Positions 1-64,000 of a stretch of DNA of 64,000 nucleotides are shown piece after piece (position 1 is the stretch's first letter; every line of letters starts with the position of its first letter). Origin of the DNA: Theobroma cacao (taxonomy: Eukaryota > Streptophyta > Magnoliopsida > Malvales > Malvaceae); NCBI RefSeq assembly GCF_000208745.1, contig NC_030852.1, positions 26,335,471 to 26,399,470 on the forward strand, in the 5' to 3' direction. The notes under the pieces were generated by a model that saw only the letters and a program-made list of their open reading frames with translations, made no database searches and had not been told where the DNA came from. The position numbers and the translations under genes are program-made.

Positions 1-2905
1 CAAAATCCATTTGATAATTTTATAAAGTGTTTGAGATCAGACAATGGTAAAAAATTTGAATTCATTGATTTTTACAATAAAAATGGAATTGTTCATCAAC
101 TATCCTGCATTGGTACACCACAACATAATGGTGTTGTGGAAAGAAAACACCAACATATTCTAGCTGTGGCAAAAGCTTTAAGAATTTAGTCAAATGTTCC
201 ACTTAGCTTCTAGAGGGATGCAGTTTTAACTACTATACATATAATAAATAGAGTACCAACCAGAGTTTTATAAAACAAGTCACCATATGAAATACTTTTC
301 AAAAAGCCTCCTTCATTCAACCACTTCAACGTATTAAGATGTTTATGTTTGTTTCCACACAAACACAGCATAGAAGAAGTTTGATAACAGAGCTAGTAAG
401 TGTGTTTTTATAGGGCATCCAAACCATGTCAAAGGGTACAAAATATATGATCTTAAAGCACAAAAAGTACTAGTATCCAGAGATGTTTTTCATGAGGATC
501 CTTTTCCTTTCCACTCTTTAAAGCATGACAAATAAGATATTACATTTCATCAAACACGTAGTATACATGTTACTTTTTTTGACATTTTTGATTCAAATCT
601 TGCAAATTCACATTTCCTTGACCAAACTCAAGTTGAATTGTGTCCTAATGAGTCTTCACCAACTGTAGAACAGCTTTCCACATCAATAAATGATGAAATT
701 TCTCAAAATTCATCACTTGGTAGTAGTGTGCCTGATAATGACAGTACTAATCAACCTAAAACAAACCATACCATTGATTCAATTCAGCCAATTAGGAGAA
801 GTATAAGAATGAAAAGCATACCAAAGTACCTAGAAGCATATCAGATATATCTACCTTCTCATACTAGTATCGTTAGCTCACATCCTATATCCAAATTCAT
901 TTCTCTTCATAATCTGCCACCAAAACATAAAGCATTCACTATATCATTGTCAAACATACAAGACTTTACATCTTATCATCAAGCAATGACTCATTCACAC
1001 TGAAGAGATGCAATGGTAGTTGAATTAAAAGCTTTGGAAGAAAATGACACTTGGAGTGTAGTACCATTACTTGTTAATTATCACACTGTTGGTTGTAAAT
1101 GGGTGTATAAGACCAAGTTGAATGAAAAAGGTGAAGTAGAAAGGTACAAAGCAAGATTGTTACCAAAGGGTACAGTCAAGTAGTTGGTTTTGACTATTAA
1201 GAAACCTTTAGCCTTGGGGCTAAACAATCTACAATGAGGATTTTCTTTGCACTTGCAGCTGTAAACAACTGGATGCTAACTCAGCAACATGTAAACAATG
1301 CATTTTTATATGGAGATTTAAATTAAGAAGTTTTCATGGAGCTGCATGAGGGATAAATAGTTAAGAGGGAATATCCTAATGGATCAAAGTTATCATGTAA
1401 ACTCCACAAATCTTTGTATGGGTTCAAGCAAGCTTTAAGGCAATGGAATGCTAAATTGACATCATCCATTATCCATTATGGATTCAAACAATCGTTATCA
1501 GACTATTCATTGTTCATTATGAACACAACTGATGGTGATTTTGAAGCTTTGCTAACATATGTTGATGACATTCTAATTGGCAACACCTCTGCTCAAGCTG
1601 TAGCTATAGTCAAGGAACACTTGAGTTCACAATTTTAGCTTAAGGATCTAGGCACAATAAAATATTTCCTTGGTTTTGAGATAACAAGATCACCACAAGG
1701 AATTTCAATATATCAGAGAAAGTACACACTTGATTTGCTAGAAAAACATGGCCCATTTAGAACTAAGCTTGTGTCAACACCTATTGATTACAATGTAAAG
1801 TTAAAAAAAGTAAGCAAAGAAGATGAGTTAGCAAATCCCCCAAAGTATAGACAGTTGGTTGGAAAGCTTCTTTATTTGGCATTTACAAGGCCTGACATAT
1901 CCTATGCAATGCAAACTTTAGCTCAGTTCATGGACAAGCCAACACATGAGCATTATACAACAACTTGTAAGGTACTAAAGTACTTAAAGACAACACTTGG
2001 TTAGGGGATTTTAATGAAAGCAAAATTTGATTTGAGGATTTCAGTATATTGTGATAGTGACTGGACAGGTTGTCCTAATACCAACAAGTCTATCACTAGC
2101 TATTGTGTGTTCATTGGAAAGTTACTAGTAAGCTCGAATCCAAGAAACAATAAGTGGTAGCTCGAAGTTTAACTAAAGTAGAGAGTAGATCAATGACAAC
2201 CACATGTTGTGAGGTAATCTGGATAAAAAGCTTGCTTAATGATTTTGGAATTAAACACAAAGGTACAATAAAGCTTCACTGTGATAATCAGTCATCCATC
2301 TATAACAACAGAAATCCAATTTTTCATAAAAAGAAAAAACATATAGAGATTGATTGTCATTTTATCTGAGGAAAGATTTTGAATGGTATGATTGAACCAA
2401 TTTATGTACCAACAGAATTACAAGTTGTAGATGCATTCACTAAGACTTTGCAACTTGGACAGTTTCAAAGATTATTATGCAAGATGAACATTCACAACGT
2501 TTATGGTTCCTCTTAAAGGGGAGTATCAACCAAGAACATCAACTCAGATCATGAAGAACAAGGACTCAAGCAGCAATGAAATAAGTACAGCAGACTCTCT
2601 GCATATAAGGACTGAAGCTGCTTTGTAAATAGCAAAGGGAATAAGGTTGAAAAGCACCGTCTCGTCACCAGACAAAAAAAGAAAAAAAGAAAAAAAAGAC
2701 ACGAAGTGCACCATTTCATAATTATAAAGCGGCACTACTTTAGCTTGATTCAAAGACACTGTTAATCATTCTTTAAATGATAGTTAGTTGGTTAATTATA
2801 TTAGTTAGGCTTTTTTATCCCTTTCTTATTCTTTTGTAAAGACTCTATATATAAGGCCCTCCTTTGTACATTTTATGATGATGAATGAATCAATCATTCC
2901 CAAAC
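1..2905 (+). mobile_element. Ty1/copia LTR retrotransposon, decayed 3' part
   Basis: The window opens inside the integrase core: RSDNG near 37-51 and PQHNGVVERKH near 118-150 are typical copia integrase motifs. Reverse transcriptase follows, with NNAFLYGDL near 1294-1323, SLYGFKQA near 1411-1434 and the catalytic YVDD at 1558-1569. The motif RPDISYA lies near 1889-1910 and RNase H-like sequence runs to about 2370. The order integrase, RT, RNase H is that of copia, not gypsy. Stop codons interrupt every domain (for example near 187, 1198 and 1325) and frames shift, so the element is dead. A polypurine tract at about 2514-2522 precedes the 3' LTR. The 5' LTR and gag lie outside the window. Confidence 0.93.
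2524..2905 (+). repeat. Probable 3' LTR of the copia element
   Basis: The segment begins just after the purine-rich AAAGGGGAG tract and carries a promoter-like TATATATAAGG at about 2846-2856. It seems to end near CCCAAACA at about 2905. The 5' LTR is not in the window, so the ends are inferred from the polypurine tract and the position of the TATA motif. The expected leading TG appears as TA, which fits decay. Confidence 0.55.
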
Positions 2906-17507: not shown

Positions 17508-19160
17508 CTATGGTCTGGCGAAAACACCCCAAATCTTACCCCTACCAAGACTCTCCAATAGCTTCTTAGCCCCTTCAACATTCATCTCAACCAGTTTCTG
17601 CAAGTACACACAAGCACCAGCAGCAACCATTTGCTTCCTACATTTCTTAGAATGTACAAGCTCTGACAAGATCAAAACAGGGTATTTTTTATCCAAATTC
17701 TGTATCAAAGGATCCAATAACTGCACCGCATTTACTATTCCTCTTTCATCCTTTTGAAAAACCTTTCTGTTACCGGCGTACAACATGAGCGTGGACAGTG
17801 CCATTGCAGCAGCTTCTTTTTCTTCAACAGCCTTGCCGTCCATCATTTTAATCAATGCCACGGTACAACCACATTCACCCATTTCTTTCCTTGTTTTCGA
17901 GTTAAACCCAAGCTCATAAACAGCTCTAGCAGCAGCAATTCTTACCCCTAAAACCCCACAGTTCAAAACAGCCACGAGCCTGGCAACGAAACCATCAGCA
18001 ACCAGAGCTTCTGCTATAGGGGAACAAGAAGCTAAGCGCCTAACTAACTCAACCGCAACTTCAAGACTTTTTGGGTTTGGAGATGAATCCCAGAAATTCT
18101 TCAAACATTCAATCCCACCTTCCTTAACGATCAAAAGCCTCAAATTTTCATCATCAGAAACCAAATTACACAAACACCCAATCGAATTTTCTTGTGCTAA
18201 GGCAGTCCCTGAAGCAGCAAGCCCGATTAAAACAAAAACCGCGTTTTCTTCAATAAAATTCTCTTTAATTTCATCAACAGAAGCTAAGTTTTTCAAAACC
18301 CCGGCTGCAAAAGCTTGAGAACCCGGTGTGCCAGCTTGGCAAATCTCTAAGAGAGACGAAATCCCACCTCTGGAACCAATTGCTCTGGCGTTTTCTTTTG
18401 AAAAACTTAAAGCTTGTAAAGCAATGCAAGCTTTTTCCTTTGCGAAACCGCTTCCGGATTCAAGAACTCGAAGCAGATGGTTCAAAAGCAACAGACCTTC
18501 AGCGATCAACACGTGTTTGCTTGACTCCACCGTTGAGACCCTCGAGATGGCGGCGACAGTCTTTTCTTTCATTTCTAAAGAGCTCGAATCCAGTAAGCGC
18601 ACGAGCACGGGAACCACACCCTGCGCCACGGCTATCATCACGTTTTTGTCGTCCTCTTGGAGTAATCCTAAAAGCGAGTCCATGGCCGAGTTTTTAGACT
18701 CGGTGGTTCCGATTTGTAACCGAGTAATCAAGTTTCTAGACTCGACTCGTACGGCTTCTTTCTTTGACGAAGAAGTTGAGACGGCGCCGTCTTGGAGCAC
18801 TCCACTCCGAATCAAAATCTCGCTATCTTTGATATGTCGATCTAGTTTAGCCAAAACGGCGTCGATGTCGCTCTGGGTCTTGAGTTTTCCCTCAGTCAAA
18901 TCGGCGAGCTGACATTTCTGGGAAAGCGAGACGGCGTCGTTCAAGGTTTGGGTGATGGAATAAAGTAGGTCGACGGCGAGAGGGTTAGAGGAAGAAGCGG
19001 GAAAGTCGGAGAAGTCAGCGAGTTGAGCCTGGAGACCAGAAAGCTTGGATTTGATCAAAGCCCATTTGCCTTTGAAATTGTTGATGTTTGGGATTTGTTC
19101 CGAAAGGGAAGCCAAAAGATGATTCGAAAGAGAAATCGGGTCGTTTTCTGGTACTTTCAT
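17508..19160 (-). CDS. Armadillo (ARM) repeat protein, intronless
   Basis: A single 550-codon ORF on the minus strand. Residues 1 to about 140 form a helical N-terminal region. From about 150 to the end the protein is a run of 40-42-residue ARM repeats, for example RNLITRLQIGTTESKNSAMD, then VVPVLVRLLDSS, GGISSLLEICQ and GCTVALIKMMDG, each followed by helix-forming ALxxL-type segments. It lacks a U-box, F-box or kinase domain, so it is not a PUB E3 ligase. It resembles the intronless Arabidopsis ARM protein At5g50900 (from memory). ARM solenoids bind other proteins; the partner is unknown. The start is supported by an ATG well placed after a long untranslated stretch with stops in frame. Confidence 0.9.
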   Translation of the reverse strand: MKVPENDPISLSNHLLASLSEQIPNINNFKGKWALIKSKLSGLQAQLADFSDFPASSSNPLAVDLLYSITQTLNDAVSLSQKCQLADLTEGKLKTQSDIDAVLAKLDRHIKDSEILIRSGVLQDGAVSTSSSKKEAVRVESRNLITRLQIGTTESKNSAMDSLLGLLQEDDKNVMIAVAQGVVPVLVRLLDSSSLEMKEKTVAAISRVSTVESSKHVLIAEGLLLLNHLLRVLESGSGFAKEKACIALQALSFSKENARAIGSRGGISSLLEICQAGTPGSQAFAAGVLKNLASVDEIKENFIEENAVFVLIGLAASGTALAQENSIGCLCNLVSDDENLRLLIVKEGGIECLKNFWDSSPNPKSLEVAVELVRRLASCSPIAEALVADGFVARLVAVLNCGVLGVRIAAARAVYELGFNSKTRKEMGECGCTVALIKMMDGKAVEEKEAAAMALSTLMLYAGNRKVFQKDERGIVNAVQLLDPLIQNLDKKYPVLILSELVHSKKCRKQMVAAGACVYLQKLVEMNVEGAKKLLESLGRGKIWGVFARP

Positions 19161-25875: not shown

Positions 25876-25885
25876 CTATAAATAG
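25876..25885 (+). promoter_or_regulatory. TATA box of the MIR169 gene
   Basis: CTATAAATAG lies 105 bases upstream of the mature miR169 sequence and about 65 bases before the base of the hairpin. This is the usual arrangement for a plant Pol II MIR gene, with transcription expected to start near 25910. Confidence 0.75.
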
Positions 25886-25948
25886 AGCTTTCTCAATGCT
25901 TGATTGTGCATATCCAACACCCAAGTAGCAAATTGAGGGAGGAAGAGC

Positions 25949-26124
25949 GGTCTTGTATGGAGATTAAGAGTCTTGTTGGGTAGCCAAGGATGACTTGCCT
26001 ATATCCAAAAAGGATTTTGAGGAAAGAAAAGCTGAATCTGATAAATCTCATCAGAGTCCTTTTAATGGTTTCTGGGCAGTCTCCTTTGGCTATCCTGACT
26101 GGCTCTTATCTTTCATGCTTGACC
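25949..26124 (+). ncRNA. MIR169: MIR169 microRNA precursor
   Basis: TAGCCAAGGATGACTTGCCT at 25981-26000 matches the conserved miR169 family, in the variant with 5' T and a TGCCTA end. The opposite arm at about 26075-26094 (GGGCAGTCTCCTTTGGCTA) pairs with it as the star strand, with small bulges. The stem continues below: 25950-25971 pairs with about 26101-26122 (CTCTTAATC/CTCTTATC, ATACAAGACC/ATGCTTGACC). The precursor is about 176 nt, with a loop of about 70 nt holding a secondary hairpin. The mature strand is on the 5' arm, as usual for MIR169. miR169 directs cleavage of NF-YA transcription-factor mRNAs and acts in drought, nitrogen and phosphate responses. No second MIR169 hairpin is visible nearby, although the family is often clustered. 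Confidence 0.92.
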
Positions 26125-28620
26125 TACATCTCTTCCATGCATAAAAAAAAAAAAAAAATCAATGCAAGTTCCTAGAAGTTTCCAAATATGTGTTATCTAA
26201 AAGCATGTACCATGCCCCCGTCAGGCATAAAAAGTATTGAGTTTGAGCTTCAAATTTTGCTTAGAGCCCTTATTTATTCGTTCTTTGAGGTGAATTGGGT
26301 GAAGGATATATGGGTAGGAAAAATTAATTATCAAGTGCTTTAATAGAGGTCTTTAATTTCAGTCTCATTAGTGATGGATGGTAACCTTGTGTCAGAATAA
26401 TGCCTACTGCTCACACTGCATTATACTCTTGTTTGCATAGTATGATTTAACCAAGGGATTGCTGTGGGGTTTAATAATGGGGTCCATTACTTAAAAAGGG
26501 CTTGAGATTCTTTTCGTTAATTATTATTTGCTTCTTATATTGCACTAAAAGAAGGCAAAAAGTCTTCGCAAAATTACTAATTAAGTTACATTCCTAGCAA
26601 CAATATGTATAAATAGTAATTAAACTACATTATTAGCTGTTGATGTGCTGCACTCTTACCCGCCTCCATGTCTCATGTCTACAAACTCGAACTTTTAGCA
26701 ATCACTAAATTGTCCACAGTAAATCGATTTTAAACTGGCTTAAGAAAGAGAGATTGGGAGGCAGAAGGGATCATCCCCCTCCCTTTATTTCAAATCATTT
26801 TTCATCTATTGAGGTTCAATATCTTGAGTCTGTGTTTGGTTTTTTGCAGGTAGCATATTCAAATCACGGTCTTCCATTGGGTATATATCTTTGCTGATTG
26901 AATTCCCAGAGGACAAATTTGAACGGGTAAACTCTTATTGGAACTTAATCTGTTGAATATGTCTAATCGTGTCGAATTTACTGATATTTTCTCCATTCAA
27001 TCATTTATCATGGTGACCCAAATTTCAGGCAGAGGTAAGGATTGTTCTTGCCATTTTCTAAATGTTGTTTCAGGCTTCATGTATTAGATATCCTCTTTAA
27101 ATATTTCTTATCCATATGACGAAACGACCTGTGGCCTACAAGCTAGCGTTTCCCTTATCTTTGGAGTAGAAGTGTCTTGTTCATTATTGGTTTTAGATGC
27201 TACTTTAACAAGAACCATAAACTGGATCACTGAAACAAAATGATTGCATGAGTGGTTCAGTTTCTTGCCATGTTTTACATAAAATAAAGTTAATTGGTCT
27301 AATGCTTGTTGAAAAAGGGCCAACTGAATTTATTGAAACTCGAAAGGACAATAAACTTTCAGATTTATAACATCATAATGAACTTATTGTGAGGGAGAGT
27401 TTTTCCTAGTAAAAAGGAAGTTTTTCTATAAATTTACTTCCTTCTCTGCTTCACTTTTCTTCCTTCCATTGTGCAGAGTTTATTGACAAATCATGGGCTT
27501 CAGGTTTCTGTCATCTCCATTGTTGTTCTGTTGGCCTACCTAGTTGCTTCACCACCTTCAAAACCAGCCGCTGCCAACTGCCAAGGGAAGCAAGAACTAG
27601 ATTTCACCTTGGAGACTGAAGGAGCCCATTTGTTTTCCAAAGAAGGGCCTCTGCTTTTTCGTAGAGTAGCTCTTGAGCTTGGGACCAGACCTTTCAAATT
27701 TGTTTCATTTAAGGTTTAACCAGAATATTTGATGTACACCTAACAATATTTATGAGTTACCATCGACCATTATTGAGCAACATTTTTTGTCCTAGGTTCA
27801 ACTTTATGGCATTTATTATCAGCTAACAAACAAAAAGGATAGCAGATAATGATTTTCCTAATCGGAAGCTTAGCAAATTCTCGGTTTGGCAAGGATTTGA
27901 ATAAGGTTCATGGCTTTTCGTTAACTGTGATTTATGTGTCTGAAACAACATCCAACTAACCTATTCTCTTAATAGAAATGTTGTTCTACTGCTTTTAATA
28001 TATATATTGGTTAATTAGGTGGGACAATTAAGCAGGAGACAAATGTAGGTTTTCGCTTTGGAAGCATATAGGGGTGCAAAGAGATTGAAATGTCGATATT
28101 TCCATCGTGGGACAGTGTGTTTTGCAGGTTAGGCATGTTCAATACAAAAAAATTTGGTGCATGGATAACCTTAATTAAATAAAGACAAGAGGATAAATTA
28201 TATATGATCTTGTATCTCTCACAAAGTCAAAGAACAAAGTTCAAAGGAAAAATAATCAGAAAAGGTCTGGCCCAGTCCATTAAAGGCCTTTTGCCCTTTG
28301 ATTAGAATTTTCTTAACCTAAACCCATTATATTTAGTCGAGAAAATTCCTCTTGCCGCGATTTTCCCTTGTTTTCTACAAAACAAGCGAATCGTCCATCT
28401 CTCAAAACCAGAAGTCAAAATTCTTTTCTTTCTTTCTTTTTAATGTTTGGAAGTTGAAAATTATATCGTGGAAGAGAGACTGGTCAATTCAATTCTCTCT
28501 CTCTCTCCCTCCTGGTGAAGTTCTTCTTTGAATCTCTGTGATCTCATTTTCTCTCTCATTTCAAGCATAAATTAATAAATAAAATCTTTAAAAATTCTCA
28601 TTTCCAGATCTAAATTATAG
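26125..28620. other. Downstream of MIR169 and upstream of LCB2
   Basis: An ORF at 27471-27719 (plus, 82 codons) contains a hydrophobic segment (SVISIVVLLAYLVA) and is preceded by an acceptor-like TTGTGCAG. I recognise no family and would not call it a gene. It could be part of a spliced primary transcript. A CT microsatellite at about 28494-28507 belongs to the LCB2 promoter or leader. Confidence 0.4.
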
Positions 28621-31700: not shown

Positions 31701-33184
31701 GTTCTAGTAGAGGTATGATGTTTTCTCCTTCTAAGACTGTTGAACTTCCATTGTGATTTCACATTTGGATCTTCAAATCTTTTTGTCATGACTTGAGGCT
31801 TTTTTGTGTAATATTTAGGGGCTCAAAAACTTGCAAGGATACGTGAGAATAGCAACTTTTTCAGGTCAGAGCTGCAAAAGATGGGATTTGAGGTTCTTGG
31901 AGATAATGATTCTACTGTGATGCCTATAATGCTTTACAATCCAGCAAAGATCCCGGCATTTTCCCGAGAGTGCCTCAAACAAAATGTGAGATTAAAGCCA
32001 ATTTCAGCTGTCCTTTTAACTTATTTGGACAGTATAGTTCTGCCATTCATCATATTTATTTTCACAGTGCATGTATCTCTCTGTCTAGTGTGTACTGACC
32101 AGTTGCTGAAAATGTAATCATGCTGTATCAGATTGCTGTTGTTACAGTTGCTTTCCCTGCCACCCCACTACTTTTGGCCAGGGCACGTATCTGTATATCT
32201 GCCGCACATACTAAGGAAGACCTTCTTAAAGCCTTGGAGGTAATTATTGGCTCTCTGCTTCCTTCTGCCCTACTCTATTGCCTTGGTTTAGACCTAGCAA
32301 TTCGTATTTTCGTGTCTTAAACGTGTCAGACACGTTTAGACACACGTTAACGTTAAACACGAACACAACACGTTTAATATTCGTGTCTTAAATTTAAAAC
32401 ACGTATACGTATACATTTAATACACGTGTAACACGATACAAAACGATTTACACGTTTTATACGTTTATTAAACGTGTCAATATACGATAGGACACGATTA
32501 AAAATACATTTAACATGATTAACACGTTTAACATGATTAAATAAAAATATTTATAATTAAATATAATTTTATTATTTAAATTTAAAATTTATAATTATAA
32601 AAATAATTATAAAAAATAATAATAATATCAAATATAATAAAATTTAATATAAATAATATACATAAAATTCATTATTATATATAAAGTTAAAATACACATC
32701 AAATAATTATTAAAAATTATTTATATAAAATTAAAATAGTTTTTAACTTTTAATGTTTAATAGGGTAATAAACATGTCATGTATACACGTTTAAACACGT
32801 ATATATGTTTAAACACGATAACACAATTAAGTAAACGTGTTTGACACGTTAAGATACGAAAATTTTCGTGTCTTAACGTGTCAGACACGATTAGACACGA
32901 AACACGTTAAGGGTAAACTCAAAACTTGTTTAATCCGTGTCTTTTTGCGTCGTGTTAACGTGTCGTGTTCAAAAATATCAGGTCTACCTTGATTATAATG
33001 TGGATTAGAAACTGCTACTGGAGTGATCAATTAGTGTGCACAAGGTGATGGTTTCAAGGGTTAATTGTAATTGCTTTCTTCATGACAGGTTATCAGTGAG
33101 GTCGGGGATATGGTGGGCATAAAATACTTCCCTGCAGAGCCTAAGAAACTGGAGCAGGGGAAAGACACAATCAAGTTGGAGTGA
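28701..33184 (+). CDS. LCB2: Serine palmitoyltransferase catalytic subunit LCB2
   Basis: Twelve exons (28701-28826, 28967-29032, 29358-29446, 29691-29836, 29919-30043, 30161-30254, 30350-30513, 30837-30998, 31586-31712, 31819-31985, 32132-32239, 33089-33184) join to 489 aa, the length I recall for Arabidopsis LCB2. With LCB1 in the ER membrane, LCB2 condenses serine and palmitoyl-CoA to 3-ketosphinganine, the first step of sphingolipid synthesis. A membrane helix lies near residues 4-24. Fold-type-I PLP signatures are STRVDGG, the DEAHS motif around residues 276-280, and GTFTKSFG with the PLP-binding lysine at about 311. The ATG used follows purine-rich leader sequence. The last intron (32240-33088) carries a hAT element. 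Intron 4 is only 82 bp. Confidence 0.97.
32289..32986. mobile_element. Non-autonomous hAT element in the last LCB2 intron (698 bp)
   Basis: The ends are TAGACCT and AGGTCTA (perfect 7-bp inverted repeats), with imperfect pairing continuing inward. They are flanked by CCTTGGTT (32281-32288) and CCTTGATT (32987-32994), an 8-bp duplication with one mismatch, diagnostic of hAT. Both subterminal regions are dense in CGTGTC/GACACG motifs in both orientations and can fold back on each other. The middle (about 32540-32750) is almost pure A/T. There is no transposase ORF. It makes this intron 849 bp long without touching the splice sites. Confidence 0.85.
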
Positions 33185-37471: not shown

Positions 37472-38428
37472 TCAGGAAAAGCCTTTCCCAAGCTTCTGGA
37501 TCGCACAAAACATTTTCCTTCTAGAACCAACTGCATTTATTCCCATATCCTTCAAATCTTCCAATGTTAACAAAGGCAAAACCTCATCATCCACTTCATG
37601 GATCTCGAAAACCGGGGCATACCTTCCTAACCCCAAACTGTTCAACCATATCCTAACCCCATCTTCCCCACACTGCCGAATGTCGGTATCAGACGGCCCA
37701 GATAACTCCACCCCGTCCGAAACCCTAGTCCGAATTGGTCTCCTTTGACTACTCCCATGATAAAGAACTTCCCTTTCACTGCCATCGACACCCAGATTAT
37801 CCAACGAATGAATCGGACTCCGCTCTTTCATGGGGCTTTCGGAGTTCTCCATGTCGAAATCATCGTTATCTTCTCCGGCACTGTATTTGTCCTCTGTTTC
37901 CACATTATTGTTGTTAGCGTTGTTTTTGCTGCCGTTGATGCTGATGTTTCCGCCCCCTCCGCCGCCGGAATCGTCGATTTTGGAAACCCAATTGGATCGG
38001 ACCCTTTTCGTTGCGGAGCCCCGTTTCTTGAAATCTTTGACTCTCCAGCTACCAATAGCGACGCTATCTAAATTGCTGTTATTGTTGTTAGCATCCCTTT
38101 CGTCATCGAAGGTTTCGTTGTTGGTGTTGAAGTCAGTGCTGAGATTGGTTAGAGCGCGAGTTTTGGACGATTTAGTACTTGCAGCGGCGACAGAGGGATT
38201 TAAGGAATGATGGGGTTGGTGTTTCCATTGCTTGACGCCGGCCGCGGCGGCGGCGGAAGAGGACGAGGGTCTTCGAATATGAGAATCGTAGGGTTGGTCG
38301 CCGCCGATGTCGCCTAATCGAACGCTGGGACGTCTCTGGCGTTTCGATCCAACGGTCTCAGATGAAGCCACCACGAGGGGTCCGACGACGCCGTTTAGCT
38401 GACCGTCCGATGGGTTTATATCCGCCAT
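37472..38428 (-). CDS. SAM (sterile alpha motif) domain protein
   Basis: A single 318-codon minus-strand exon. The N-terminal 250 residues are low complexity: KRQRRPSVRLGDIGGD near 29-44, alanine and asparagine runs, a six-glycine run, and a basic patch (VKDFKKRGSATKRVRS) that may be a nuclear localisation signal. Residues 255-318 form a C-terminal SAM domain: VRIWLNSLGLGRYAPVFEI, then LLTLEDLKDMGI and RRKMFCAIQKL, which give the five-helix pattern. SAM domains mediate protein-protein contacts or polymerisation. The architecture matches a plant family with members such as At3g48800, At5g23680 and At3g07170 (from memory), of unknown function. It lies between LCB2 and SIA2. Confidence 0.9.
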   Translation of the reverse strand: MADINPSDGQLNGVVGPLVVASSETVGSKRQRRPSVRLGDIGGDQPYDSHIRRPSSSSAAAAAGVKQWKHQPHHSLNPSVAAASTKSSKTRALTNLSTDFNTNNETFDDERDANNNNSNLDSVAIGSWRVKDFKKRGSATKRVRSNWVSKIDDSGGGGGGNISINGSKNNANNNNVETEDKYSAGEDNDDFDMENSESPMKERSPIHSLDNLGVDGSEREVLYHGSSQRRPIRTRVSDGVELSGPSDTDIRQCGEDGVRIWLNSLGLGRYAPVFEIHEVDDEVLPLLTLEDLKDMGINAVGSRRKMFCAIQKLGKGFS

Positions 38429-39805
38429 TTTTATTTTTCTAGGCTTTTTCTATTATTTTTTTTCTGGGTTTGTTCTATTTGTGAAGAAAGTGAGGAAGGC
38501 AAAGTTGTGATAAAAGAAGGTGGCTTTTGGATGGAGAGAGAGAGAGAGTGAAGTAAATGAAGCGAGGAGAAGAAAAGAGAAAGGAAGAGAGAGTGGAATT
38601 GGAGTGTGTCAATTGAGATGTTGGGTTAGTGACGCGTGTCCCCTTTTCCTACCGAAAGGGAACAAAAGGTTTTCCAGATTTTCAATATTATTTCAAGTCG
38701 TTGGAGTAATTGATTTTCAGATGAGGAAATTGTATGCGGCAACATATTATGGTCTCGAGGACCATATAATAACAAAGCAAAGAGGATGTACTATAAATTC
38801 TGTATTCAACATGTTTTGATTAGTAAAAAAGACAGTCAAAGCATTAAAAAAACTATCCTATTTATTATACAAGTTTTGGTCCTATACTCATATTAATGCT
38901 AATAAAATGAGAAAAGTTAAGAGGACAAAAGAATTATGACTATTTAGCTAAATTAATGATGCGAGTATGTATCAAAATTTACATATCTCCTTTCCAGAAA
39001 TCATTGATACTTAATGCAACCAATGTTGATTCACACACAAAATTCAGAAGAAAGCCTGATTCTATATGTCAACTAAATGGGGCCATAGCCCTTAGCCTAC
39101 TAACTAGCAATCAATGACTTTGCCAAAGACAAGATGAGACTTCAGTAATTCCAGCCAAAGGGTCATCCAGAATCAACACGCTATAGACACTAGAAAGTTA
39201 TTACTCATTATGCCTAGGAATTTCAACCATTTAAAAAGGTCCGAATGAAAAATTGCTGTGCCACATACCGACCTGCTCCTCAGCACATGTACTATTAATG
39301 CTTTTTGTCTACATTCTCACAAGAAATTTCTAGTGCAAGTTGTGATTTGCGAATCTGTTGTCAACCCTGACTTCTGACTCTTTTGCTTCGTTTGAGTTTC
39401 ATGGAAAAATTTTAGGCACCAAGCTAATGATAGACATGCTAGAAAGTCAACTGTATGCCTTATGAAATGGGTAAAGCGTCTACATCAGAATCTCATGAAT
39501 TCATAAATACAATGTAGACCCTATTAGCACTGAAAAATAACAATGAACCTACGCATGAAACCTTGCAAAACTGACTTTCTAATCTACACTTGCTTTTCGA
39601 CTGAAGGGAGCTTTCAAAAGGCAATGCAGCCTGAAAGCTTTCACTCCCAAAATGAATCTTTTAAGATGAGTATGCTAGTTGCGGCTGCTTCAAGTGTAGC
39701 CCAAAGTGGCCTCCGTTTTTTCAGTCTTTAATTTGTCTCTGTGAACTATATCCAGCAATAGTTTCACAGTTAGGAAGGTCAAGATCAAGCGCGGTTACCA
39801 ACGAT
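38429..39805. other. SAM gene leader/promoter and SIA2 3' flank
   Basis: About 38429-38600 is the likely 5' UTR of the SAM gene (CT-rich on the minus strand, with a GA microsatellite near 38531). About 39600-39805 is the likely 3' UTR of the sialyltransferase-like gene. Nothing else is recognised. Confidence 0.45.
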
Positions 39806-61210: not shown

Positions 61211-63267
61211 TTAATGGAAACAACACAAGTTGTCGTTGAGCCCAGATGAATTCAGAAATTTTTGTCTTTGGTCCTCCACATCCCACAATAGACTACCATT
61301 ATCCTGAAAAAGATGTGTTGTCAAATAGTTGGAATATATATTTTTTTATTATTAAATATAGTATTTTCTTTTGTAATCTACTTACTACTATACTACTACT
61401 TATGGCACACAAAAATGTTAAAACAAATAAAGTATATGTATATATATGTATATACCTGAGAGAAGACATTGGGCCTCTGCCCCTGCTGAAGTAAAAGTGC
61501 AGCTGAAGCATCCAGAAGAGGATAGTTATTAGCTGGGACAAAGGTGGTGGTGGTTGTATCAGCAAAAGCTGTAGGCTGAGTGGGGTTGCATTGTTGCAGA
61601 GATGGCAGTGGTGATGCTATACTACCGTTCACTCTCTAAAATAATTATGTCAGAGACAAAGATTTCATTGGCTTTTGTAATGAATCACGGCTATAAGAAG
61701 AACATATAAACAACTTAAAAAAAATTTCCTTTTTATCCCATGTTTTCTTACCTCTGGTCTGACCATCAATGCTTCCAGGTCCACTCCAAAGTCATAGAAC
61801 ATGGGATTCACAGAAGCAAGCTTCATTGAGAGAAACTGAAGACATGACAACGGAAAAAATATATTATTGCTTTGGTCTTACATTAGAGGAATGAGTTAAC
61901 TAGTTGGATTACAAATGTAAACACTTGTTTATTGTACCTCTACTTGATTTTGTAGGGACTGAACATAATTGATAATTTCATCCAACATAAGGGCCTTTCC
62001 AGTTACCTATTATCATGCATAACCACATGAAAGCTGTCAGAAATGTACTGTGTCGATCTATTACCCAAATGAACTGAAGCAATTGCATTATTTTCCTGTG
62101 AAAGACAAAGTCAAGACAAATGTACTGCACCGCACCTTGTCACACCCTGGAACAAGACGCTGCAATATCTTCATCCTCTCACTGATTTTCTCTCTTCTTA
62201 CCTGCAATCCATTTGGAGATATAACCAACAAGATATAAATAATAGGTCGGCATGATAAAGTTGTAATCCACAGTTCCTTATGATTAAAAATAATGGCTAT
62301 TAGGTGGGGGTATAATAGTAAACCAAAGTTTCGTACTTTATTTCAGTCCAAGGGTTTTTAACGTCAAATGATGATGGTAGCCGAACACGGGACTAGCTTG
62401 GTCCCATCGTTCACACACCCTCCCTAGGCGATGGGATTGACCCAGCAGGGGCTGAGGGCTGAGCCCAGCTCCTGCAAAAGCCTGGGATTCTAACTCTCTA
62501 ACCCCTAAACATTGACTAACTAGAAAAAGAAAAAACAGTGGTGCGGTACCCTTTCTGCTAGACTGTGGCTGTCTGTTGCTTGACCCCTCCTGGCTCTTAC
62601 ATGAATGTAGCCTGTTGGAGGCTCTTCAGTGGCTTTCTTTTGATCCTTCTTATCAGCTTTTGACTCTTTCTTTTCATTTTTCAGGACATCATTGCGCTTC
62701 CTTTGCTTCTTGCTTTTCCCTTCCTTTGCATCCTAATGGAAATAAAACACGAAAATTTGGACACACAGCCGGATAAATTGAAAATCAATTTAAAAAACCA
62801 ATCATCGAAAAGCCGAAGAATCTTGTCTAAATTAAAACCAGCATGCACATGTAATTTGTAAGTTGTTGAATATACATGGGTTTCAAGCAGTATACCTTAG
62901 ATTGAGCGGAATTCAAGGTAGTCCTACTTCTGGTCTTCCTTTTCCTGTCTGTGAGAGTCACATTCTGAGTGACTTGCTCGCCGCTTTCAAGCTTATCCAC
63001 CACAGTTGAGTCGTCAGTGCTCTGTTTTTTGGTCACAGAAGGCTCATTATCGCTATGAGCAAGCTTCGAGCTGTGATCAAGACAGCTGCTTTCATGGAAC
63101 TTAGGGTCAAGAGGGGACTCCTGGATAGGCTCGGGTGGGTAAAATTGAGAGAAACAATTGGAGTTGATGTTTCCTTCCTCCATAAAGCCAGAAACTTTGG
63201 TGGGGGTGTTGGGCAAGAAAATGGAGTCAAGAAGAAAAGGGTGAGGTTGGAATGAAAAGGCTGCCAT
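61211..63267 (-). CDS. bHLH137: bHLH transcription factor bHLH137
   Basis: Seven minus-strand exons, all phase 0 (63267-62896, 62732-62550, 62201-62136, 62006-61938, 61835-61752, 61635-61456, 61303-61211), join to 348 aa. After an acidic, serine-rich N-terminus and a lysine-rich linker, the bHLH spans about 175-232: [58 protein letters not shown]. The basic region keeps His180, Glu184 and Arg188, the set that reads E-box/G-box DNA (CANNTG). The C-terminal [17 protein letters not shown] stretch and length match bHLH137 (At5g50915) of the BEE/CIB-type group, linked to gibberellin and brassinosteroid growth responses. Start: an in-frame ATG exists 14 codons upstream at 63309, but family members begin MA(A/T)FSxF. 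A GC-rich repeat-like insert lies in intron 2. Confidence 0.93.
62340..62520. repeat. GC-rich, hairpin-forming insert in bHLH137 intron 2
   Basis: Within the 347-bp intron, CCCATCG near 62403 pairs with CGATGGG near 62428, and GGGCTGAG and CTGAGCCC motifs alternate near 62450-62467. The composition is unlike the surrounding AT-rich intron. It may be a short interspersed repeat; I could not define its ends. Confidence 0.35.
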
Positions 63268-63420
63268 ATGGGGAAGCGGTTTTTGCAATTCAAACAGAGG
63301 AAAATGCAAGGTTTCAAGAAAGTGATGGGAGAGACAGAGGCTGAGAGAGCTGATGATACTTGAAGGCAGCCAGAAGTAGCAGTCAAGAAAAGTGGGTCTA
63401 TGACGATCAAAAATGCCAAG

Positions 63421-63432
63421 GTTTATATAAAC
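63421..63432 (-). promoter_or_regulatory. TATA box of bHLH137
   Basis: The palindromic GTTTATATAAAC lies about 155 bases upstream of the chosen ATG (63267) on the minus strand, a plausible core-promoter position. Confidence 0.6.
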
Positions 63433-63436
63433 ATCA

Positions 63437-63478
63437 GGAGAGAGAAGAGAAGAGAAGAGAGAGAGAGAGAGAGAGAGA
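63437..63478. repeat. (GA)n microsatellite in the bHLH137 promoter
   Basis: GAGAGAAGAGAAGAGAAGAG followed by a pure GA run lies just upstream of the TATA box. GA/CT tracts bound by BBR/BPC factors are common in plant promoters; any role here is inference. Confidence 0.8.
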
Positions 63479-64000
63479 CGACAGACTCATTAAAATTCAA
63501 GTAAAAAACTTTCCTACCTCATTCCCATGCAATGTCTGTATATTTGACTGGTCTTATCTCCGTCACCACCCCTCTCTTAGATAAATAGTTCAAAAAAACA
63601 TGAAAACTGAACAACAAAACAACAGCCCAAAAAGGTAAATGTGAATTTTTTAGATACAGTGCATGTAATTAAGAAAGTGAGATACTAGCTAGAGTTAATA
63701 AAGATATAATTTAAAATTATGTTTGACACCACAATCACAATCTTCTAACCCCTCCAGGTTTCTAGTTCAGAGTAGTAAGAAAGATTTTGTTTTTATTTTT
63801 CCCTCTTTTGTAGTAGTAATTTATTTTAGGTTAAAATGTCAGTGATTCAGTATTTCAGAAATACTATACCTATTCTTTCTGTGCTGTATAATGATAGTCC
63901 ATGACAGTGATTTGGCAAACTTTCTTCAGAGAAATTAATTACTTATGCTGTTGAGAAATCAACAATATTGTCAAGCTTACTTGTCAGTCTGATAAAAAAA
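63479..64000. other. bHLH137 upstream region
   Basis: Upstream promoter sequence of bHLH137. No gene is seen to the end of the window. Confidence 0.5.

What the first reader, a model, noticed from the sequence alone, without database searches (positions are those of the whole stretch)
25876..26124. MIR169 locus with its own TATA box
Seen: a 19-20-nt match to miR169 on the 5' arm, a star strand at about 26075-26094 and a stem extending about 30 bp below the duplex, 65 bases downstream of CTATAAATAG. Known: miR169 targets NF-YA mRNAs. The precursor has an unusually long loop region (about 70 nt with its own hairpin). No protein-coding call would reveal this gene.
Basis: partly seen in the sequence, partly recalled or inferred. 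Interest (0 to 1): 0.75.

Follow-up and report, generated by a model that had tools for sequence, protein, structure and literature searches.

The report
Ordinary cacao MIR169 microRNA gene
This is one of some twenty copies of a well-known plant microRNA gene in the cacao genome, probably read from its own short promoter and predicted to silence NF-YA transcription-factor genes; it is ordinary, apart from a database model that matches its opposite strand.

Summary
In the cacao genome (species), window 25949-26124 (+) folds into one long hairpin (-79.2 kcal/mol, z -7.2) with a 21-nt miR169 on the 5' arm (25981-26001) and a computed star at exactly 26075-26094. It passes Rfam's cut-off for MIR169_2. 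Nine clade loci, the window included, share the hairpin, with compensatory changes in 10 of 49 pairs. The TATA box at 25876-25885 is conserved: TATAAATA stands 81-102 nt above the precursor in 6 of 9 clade loci; within 300 nt it occurs in sense at 10 of 22 MIR169 loci and in antisense at 0 of 22. Six of seven NF-YA genes carry a matching site; 0 of 300 shuffled miRNAs matched any. The loop is longish but not exceptional: 3 of 20 other loci have longer precursors. A trap: Rfam MIR169_5 scores higher (81.5 bits) on the MINUS strand, and all 8 of its genome matches lie antisense to a canonical miR169, so that model probably describes the reverse complement. Fold, promoter and targets favour plus. 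No small-RNA reads could be checked. Verdict: a genuine, ordinary MIR169 member.

The parts
25876..25885 (+). TATA box CTATAAATAG, core promoter
   Evidence: Only copy in window; TATAAATA 81-102 nt upstream of the precursor in 6 of 9 clade loci, sense strand only.
25905..25916 (+). expected transcription start, about 30 nt below the TATA box
   Evidence: Inference from TATA spacing; maize pri-miRNAs have TATA-like motifs at -23 to -28 (PMC2773440, passages). Not measured.
25949..25980 (+). 5' side of the lower stem; 25959-25980 is the segment that could give a lower-stem small RNA
   Evidence: 26 pairs below the duplex in the MFE fold; helix kept in 9 clade loci; Arabidopsis miR169m.2 and like RNAs come from near the hairpin base (PMC2945783, passages).
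25981..26001 (+). mature miR169, TAGCCAAGGATGACTTGCCTA
   Evidence: Sequence; Rfam MIR169_2; mean pairwise identity 0.913 across 9 clade loci against 0.225 in the loop.
26002..26074 (+). loop region with upper stem
   Evidence: Fold.
26075..26094 (+). miR169 star, GGCAGTCTCCTTTGGCTATC
   Evidence: 2-nt overhang rule applied to the MFE fold; one T longer than Arabidopsis miR169i.1* GGCAGTCTCCTTGGCTATC as printed in PMC2945783.
26095..26124 (+). 3' side of the lower stem
   Evidence: Fold and consensus structure.
25961..26112 (-). antisense match to Rfam MIR169_5, judged a wrong-strand model hit
   Evidence: 81.5 bits; all 8 RF00865 matches listed for the genome lie antisense to the canonical miR169 of that place.

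Best explanation
A MIR169 gene on the plus strand, of the clade whose mature form is TAGCC...CCTR and whose star is GGCAGTCTCC(T)TTGGCTA. RNA polymerase II most likely starts about 30 nt below the TATA box at 25876, giving a short leader before the hairpin (inferred). DCL1 most likely cuts from the base towards the loop in about 21-nt steps, releasing miR169 at 25981-26001 (inferred from the long conserved lower stem and the published mode for miR169). The miRNA then guides cleavage of NF-YA mRNAs in their 3' part (sites shown by sequence, cleavage not shown).
For: Hairpin z -7.17 and Rfam MIR169_2 above cut-off. Nine clade loci share the helix, with compensatory changes in 10 of 49 pairs; identity 0.913 in the miRNA, 0.225 in the loop. 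Plus strand: the window's precursor folds at -66.2 sense against -46.4 antisense; sense better in 18 of 21 loci; 165 G-U pairs against 20 A-C mismatches in sense folds. TATAAATA within 300 nt upstream at 10 of 22 loci in sense, 0 of 22 in antisense; in the narrower interval 66-115 nt, 6 of 9 clade loci against 0.04 expected. Penalties of 3-5 in 6 of 7 NF-YA genes on the gene's own strand; 0 of 300 shuffled miRNAs reach 5 in any gene. Sequential base-to-loop processing of ath-miR169b, and miR169 listed among families with a conserved mode: PMC8688358 (passages).
Against: No expression, small-RNA or degradome data were available. One NF-YA gene (C6:278256) has no site in the stretch examined (best 8.5). 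The window's miRNA is not the best-fitting family member for any of the six targets: other members score 1-2.5 there, so it may be redundant. Three of 21 loci fold slightly better on the antisense strand, one of them in this clade (C9:32363541). The interval behind the 0.04 expectation was chosen after I had seen the distances, and the loci are related, so the TATA boxes are not independent events; one search repeats the count with wide intervals but without an expectation. The covariation term of the consensus fold is small (-0.96 of -50.12).
Confidence: 0.93

Rival explanations
1. The minus strand is the gene, or a second gene: an antisense MIR169_5-type precursor whose 5' arm gives UAGCCAAAGGAGACUGCCCAG, as Rfam's higher-scoring match would suggest.
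For: 81.5 bits on the minus strand, the best of the 8 RF00865 matches listed for the genome. The minus strand still folds better than shuffles, z -3.42, 1 of 200 shuffles as good. Reverse-complement miRNAs are reported in plants: 59 candidates in ten species, among them RC-zma-MIR169d, RC-osa-MIR169c and RC-osa-MIR169q, with none in a control of 1,000 random antisense sequences per plant (PMC3479107, passages and section 5).
Against: All 8 RF00865 matches are antisense to canonical miR169, and the model's 3' arm GGCAAGuCAUCCUUGGCUA is the exact complement of canonical miR169. RC-osa-MIR169q yields the sequence of osa-miR169h-m, so that rice entry may itself be the reversed one. TATAAATA within 500 nt: 0 of 9 clade loci in antisense. 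The predicted antisense miRNA has no NF-YA site better than 8.0. Weaker fold.
Confidence: 0.05
2. A decayed or retroposed MIR169 copy that is no longer transcribed.
For: A run of 16 A at 26143-26158 directly after the hairpin, and TCAATGC at both 25893-25899 and 26159-26165, as a target-site duplication might look. The star has one T more than its paralogs.
Against: The TATA block lies upstream of the would-be insertion and is shared with the C2:13395147 paralog (23 nt at 91%, E 0.019; alignment), so the promoter came along and this is more likely a DNA-level duplicate. The mature sequence is intact.
Confidence: 0.03

Closest known systems
Arabidopsis MIR169i/MIR169m (miR169 h-n type)
   Same: Mature sequence 20 of 21 identical; star identical but for one extra T; Arabidopsis miR169i.2-5p and miR169m.2 come from the same precursors, the latter from near the hairpin base (sequences and passages in PMC2945783).
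   Different: Precursors not aligned here beyond these printed small RNAs; no reads seen for cacao.
Rfam RF00645 MIR169_2
   Same: Matches on the plus strand at 61.9 bits, above cut-off.
   Different: Mid-range: 14th of the 36 genome matches listed; longer loop than the model.
Rfam RF00865 MIR169_5 / osa-MIR169q
   Same: Full-length match, 81.5 bits.
   Different: Matches the opposite strand, here and at all 8 places listed. That osa-MIR169q belongs to this Rfam family is recalled, not checked.
Sorghum miR169r/s antisense pair and MIR169-bHLH linkage (Calvino and Messing 2013, doi 10.1093/gbe/evt015; content recalled, paper not held; citation seen in a reference list)
   Same: A bHLH gene lies about 36 kb downstream in this window, and the antisense strand can form a hairpin.
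   Different: Antisense expression untested here; linkage in other species not tested here.

Membership tests
MIR169 | Mature sequence of the miR169 family on the 5' arm | tested here: met
   25981-26001; Rfam MIR169_2.
MIR169 | Single stem-loop with miRNA and star in opposite arms, 2-nt 3' overhangs, few mismatches | tested here: met
   three unpaired miR positions; the 20-nt star is read off by the overhang rule, so the overhang itself is assumed.
MIR169 | Precise excision seen in small-RNA reads | not testable with these tools
   No small-RNA data held.
MIR169 | Targets NF-YA mRNAs | tested here: met
   By complementarity only: 6 of 7 NF-YA genes, penalty 3-5; 0 of 300 shuffles. Cleavage not tested.
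MIR169 | Structure conserved in relatives | tested here: met
   10 of 49 consensus pairs with compensatory change in 9 clade loci of the same genome; other species not compared.
Antisense MIR169_5 gene (minus strand) | Own core promoter on the minus strand | tested here: not met
   TATAAATA in antisense within 500 nt: 0 of 9 clade loci; TATAWA in the mirrored 66-115 nt interval: 0 of 9. A TATA-less or distant start is not excluded.
Antisense MIR169_5 gene (minus strand) | Minus-strand miRNA expressed | not testable with these tools
   No reads held.

The most novel reading that the evidence does not exclude
The locus works in both directions: besides canonical miR169 from the plus strand, the minus strand is sometimes transcribed and gives a second, differently targeted miRNA (UAGCCAAAGGAGACUGCCCAG), making this clade a set of sense-antisense miRNA pairs shared by cacao and the grasses.
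Probability: 0.06. Interest if true: 0.45.

Novelty: already known. Interest (0 to 1): 0.2.

Why it matters
It confirms that a reader of raw sequence found a real-looking non-coding gene with exact arm coordinates. The practical lesson is about annotation: at 7 of the 8 cacao places matched by both Rfam models, the antisense MIR169_5 match has more bits than the sense MIR169_2 match (by E-value at 1 of 8), and at one place only the antisense match passes its cut-off. Any pipeline that ranks by bits would put such genes on the wrong strand.

Tried and rejected
Retroposed copy (poly-A and short direct repeat): rejected because the conserved TATA block lies outside the would-be insert.

Unusually long loop: rejected.

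A second, sequence-constrained miRNA in the lower stem: considered because rice has miR169i-5p.2 (name in PMC3734165, passages) and Arabidopsis miR169m.2. The segment just below the miRNA is less conserved between clade loci (0.668) than the base of the stem (0.758), so it looks kept for structure. Such products are in any case already in print.

Shared gene neighbourhood among paralogous MIR169 loci: in the 80 kb fetched at C2, C4 and C9, window reading frames gave four matches only, two transposon-like by eye and two in the MIR169 hairpin itself; a wider search was not possible. Genome-wide searches for target sites outside NF-YA and for bHLH paralogs did not complete.

Whether this exact locus already bears a tcc-MIR169 name could not be checked: one held paper contains the word tcc-miR169 (search listing only); that miRBase lists cacao MIR169 entries is recalled.

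Full report
What and where. The window comes from Theobroma cacao: the ARM-repeat protein at 17508-19157 (-) is 100% identical to a T. cacao protein, and the genome held is 324.85 Mb in 431 contigs with the window at C3:26335471-26399470. The species rests on that one protein; the next best, Herrania, is 97% identical. Neighbours named by tests: the ARM/DUF7032 gene, a SAM-domain gene at 37472-38449 (-), an aminotransferase-domain exon at 31812-32117 (+) and a bHLH gene on the minus strand at about 61.9-63.4 kb. The hairpin overlaps none of these.

Observation. The fold is far better than shuffles (z -7.17, 0 of 200). Rfam finds MIR169_2 on the plus strand (61.9 bits, cut-off 50, E 4.3e-15) and, with more bits, MIR169_5 on the minus strand (81.5, cut-off 44, E 9.8e-15).

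Family in the genome. The RF00645 search listed 36 matches (a lower bound by the tool's own note), which I grouped by hand into 22 distinct loci. Fourteen of the 36 are second matches on the other strand of the same hairpin, so a match on both strands is common in this family. Twenty-one loci were used. The 22nd (C9:252604, 38.5 bits, below cut-off) was given no locus of its own and left out there; its DNA lies in L013, and one search shows that it folds poorly (-29.4 sense, -24.1 antisense) and has a damaged mature sequence. Nine loci form a clade by their TAGCC- or AAGCC-type mature sequences, flank similarity and star: the window, C2:13395147, C4:2833903 and C4:2834145, and five at C9:32.356-32.369 Mb. 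No tree was built. Their alignment gives a consensus hairpin of 49 pairs, 10 with compensatory changes; mean pairwise identity is 0.913 in the miRNA, 0.724 over the star side, 0.668-0.758 in the lower stem, 0.225 in the loop.

Which strand. Three tests point to plus. (1) Folding: sense better in 18 of 21 loci; in sense folds 165 G-U pairs against 20 A-C mismatches, in antisense folds 65 against 22; for the nine clade loci I add up 56 against 7 in sense. Exceptions: C6:2712505, C9:22446424, C9:32363541. In three more clade loci (C9:32361027, C2:13395147, C9:32355937) the difference is under 2 kcal/mol. (2) Promoter: TATAAATA 81-102 nt upstream in 6 of 9 clade loci; within 300 nt, 10 of 22 loci in sense (the 6 plus 4 of 13 others, at 116-134 nt) and 0 of 22 in antisense. 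In the interval 66-115 nt, chosen after seeing the distances, the expectation for the clade was 0.04; the looser TATAWA gives 7 of 9 and 2 of 12 in sense (0.42 and 0.65 expected) and none in antisense. The alignment shows CTATAAATA(G/C)AG in the window, C2, C4:2833903 and C9:32358006, with little else conserved upstream. C4:2834145 has its nearest TATAAATA at 333 nt, which is the box 91 nt above C4:2833903, so the two are probably one transcript (inference). (3) Targets: the PF02045 search gave 14 exon matches that I paired into seven NF-YA genes. Six have a site with penalty 3-5 for the window's miR169 on the gene's strand, downstream of the NF-YA domain, best at C5:9438233 (3.0); C6:278256 has none (8.5). 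Other family members fit each of the six better than the window's. The antisense miRNA scores 8.0 or worse everywhere. No shuffled miRNA (0 of 300) reached 5 in any gene.

The Rfam trap. RF00865 matches the cacao genome at 8 places listed, all over cut-off, and each lies on the strand opposite to the canonical miR169 of that locus; the ninth clade locus, C2:13395147, is not among them. By bits MIR169_5 beats MIR169_2 at 7 of the 8, by E-value at 1 of 8; at C9:32355937 only MIR169_5 passes its cut-off. The model's 3' arm reads as the complement of canonical miR169. Shao and colleagues report that the reverse complement of osa-MIR169q gives the sequence of osa-miR169h-m and depends on DCL1 (PMC3479107; passages and section 5); they read such cases as reverse-complementary miRNAs and say that they cannot tell which locus acts on the NF-Y targets. 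My reading, that the MIR169_5 model and rice entries of the osa-MIR169q kind are written on the antisense strand, is an inference; that osa-MIR169q is in the RF00865 seed is recalled. One library search for RF00865 found one paper, listing only; I do not know whether the strand issue is in print elsewhere.

Mechanism. Plant MIR genes commonly carry TATA boxes (83% of maize pri-miRNAs; PMC2773440, passages). Here the box ends 63 nt above the first pair of the hairpin, so the leader should be short. The lower stem is long (26 pairs in the window) and conserved. ath-miR169b is processed sequentially from base to loop and miR169 is among 14 families with conserved modes in at least three species (PMC8688358, passages); Arabidopsis MIR169m gives small RNAs from near the hairpin base (PMC2945783, passages). 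I infer the same here. A miR169 isoform with particular NF-YA targets is known in Arabidopsis (PMC11885863, passages).

Verdict. A gene of a thoroughly known kind, correctly read. The strand trap is the only point worth passing on.

Noticed in passing
C9:32355937-32369348 (L017, L018, L019, L021, L028) and C4:2833903-2834271 (L007, L012): Clusters of five and two MIR169 genes of the same clade; one of the five (C9:32355937) is in opposite orientation, and the C4 pair seems to share one TATA box.
   Followed up: partly
the 8 RF00865 matches in the genome (L053-L060): Rfam MIR169_5 matches only the strand opposite to canonical miR169, which suggests a model built on the reverse complement.
   Followed up: partly
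window 61900-63490 (-): bHLH transcription-factor gene (HLH domain E 1.7e-08 on hand-joined exon pieces) about 36 kb from the MIR169; MIR169-bHLH linkage has been described in other plants (recalled).
   Followed up: partly
window 26143-26165 and 25893-25899: Run of 16 A just after the hairpin followed by TCAATGC, which also occurs just below the TATA box; probably chance.
   Followed up: partly
window 536-2004 (+): Open frames that look by eye like pieces of a Copia-type polyprotein; no Pfam hit at 0.001 for the 121-aa piece, similar piece in L049 at C9.
   Followed up: no
NF-YA gene at C6:278256-278524 (L034, L043): The only one of seven NF-YA genes without a miR169 site in the stretch examined.
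   Followed up: no
C9:252604-252711 (in L013, 1279-1386): Degenerate MIR169-like copy with a damaged mature sequence and poor fold, but with TATAAATA 122 nt upstream.
   Followed up: partly
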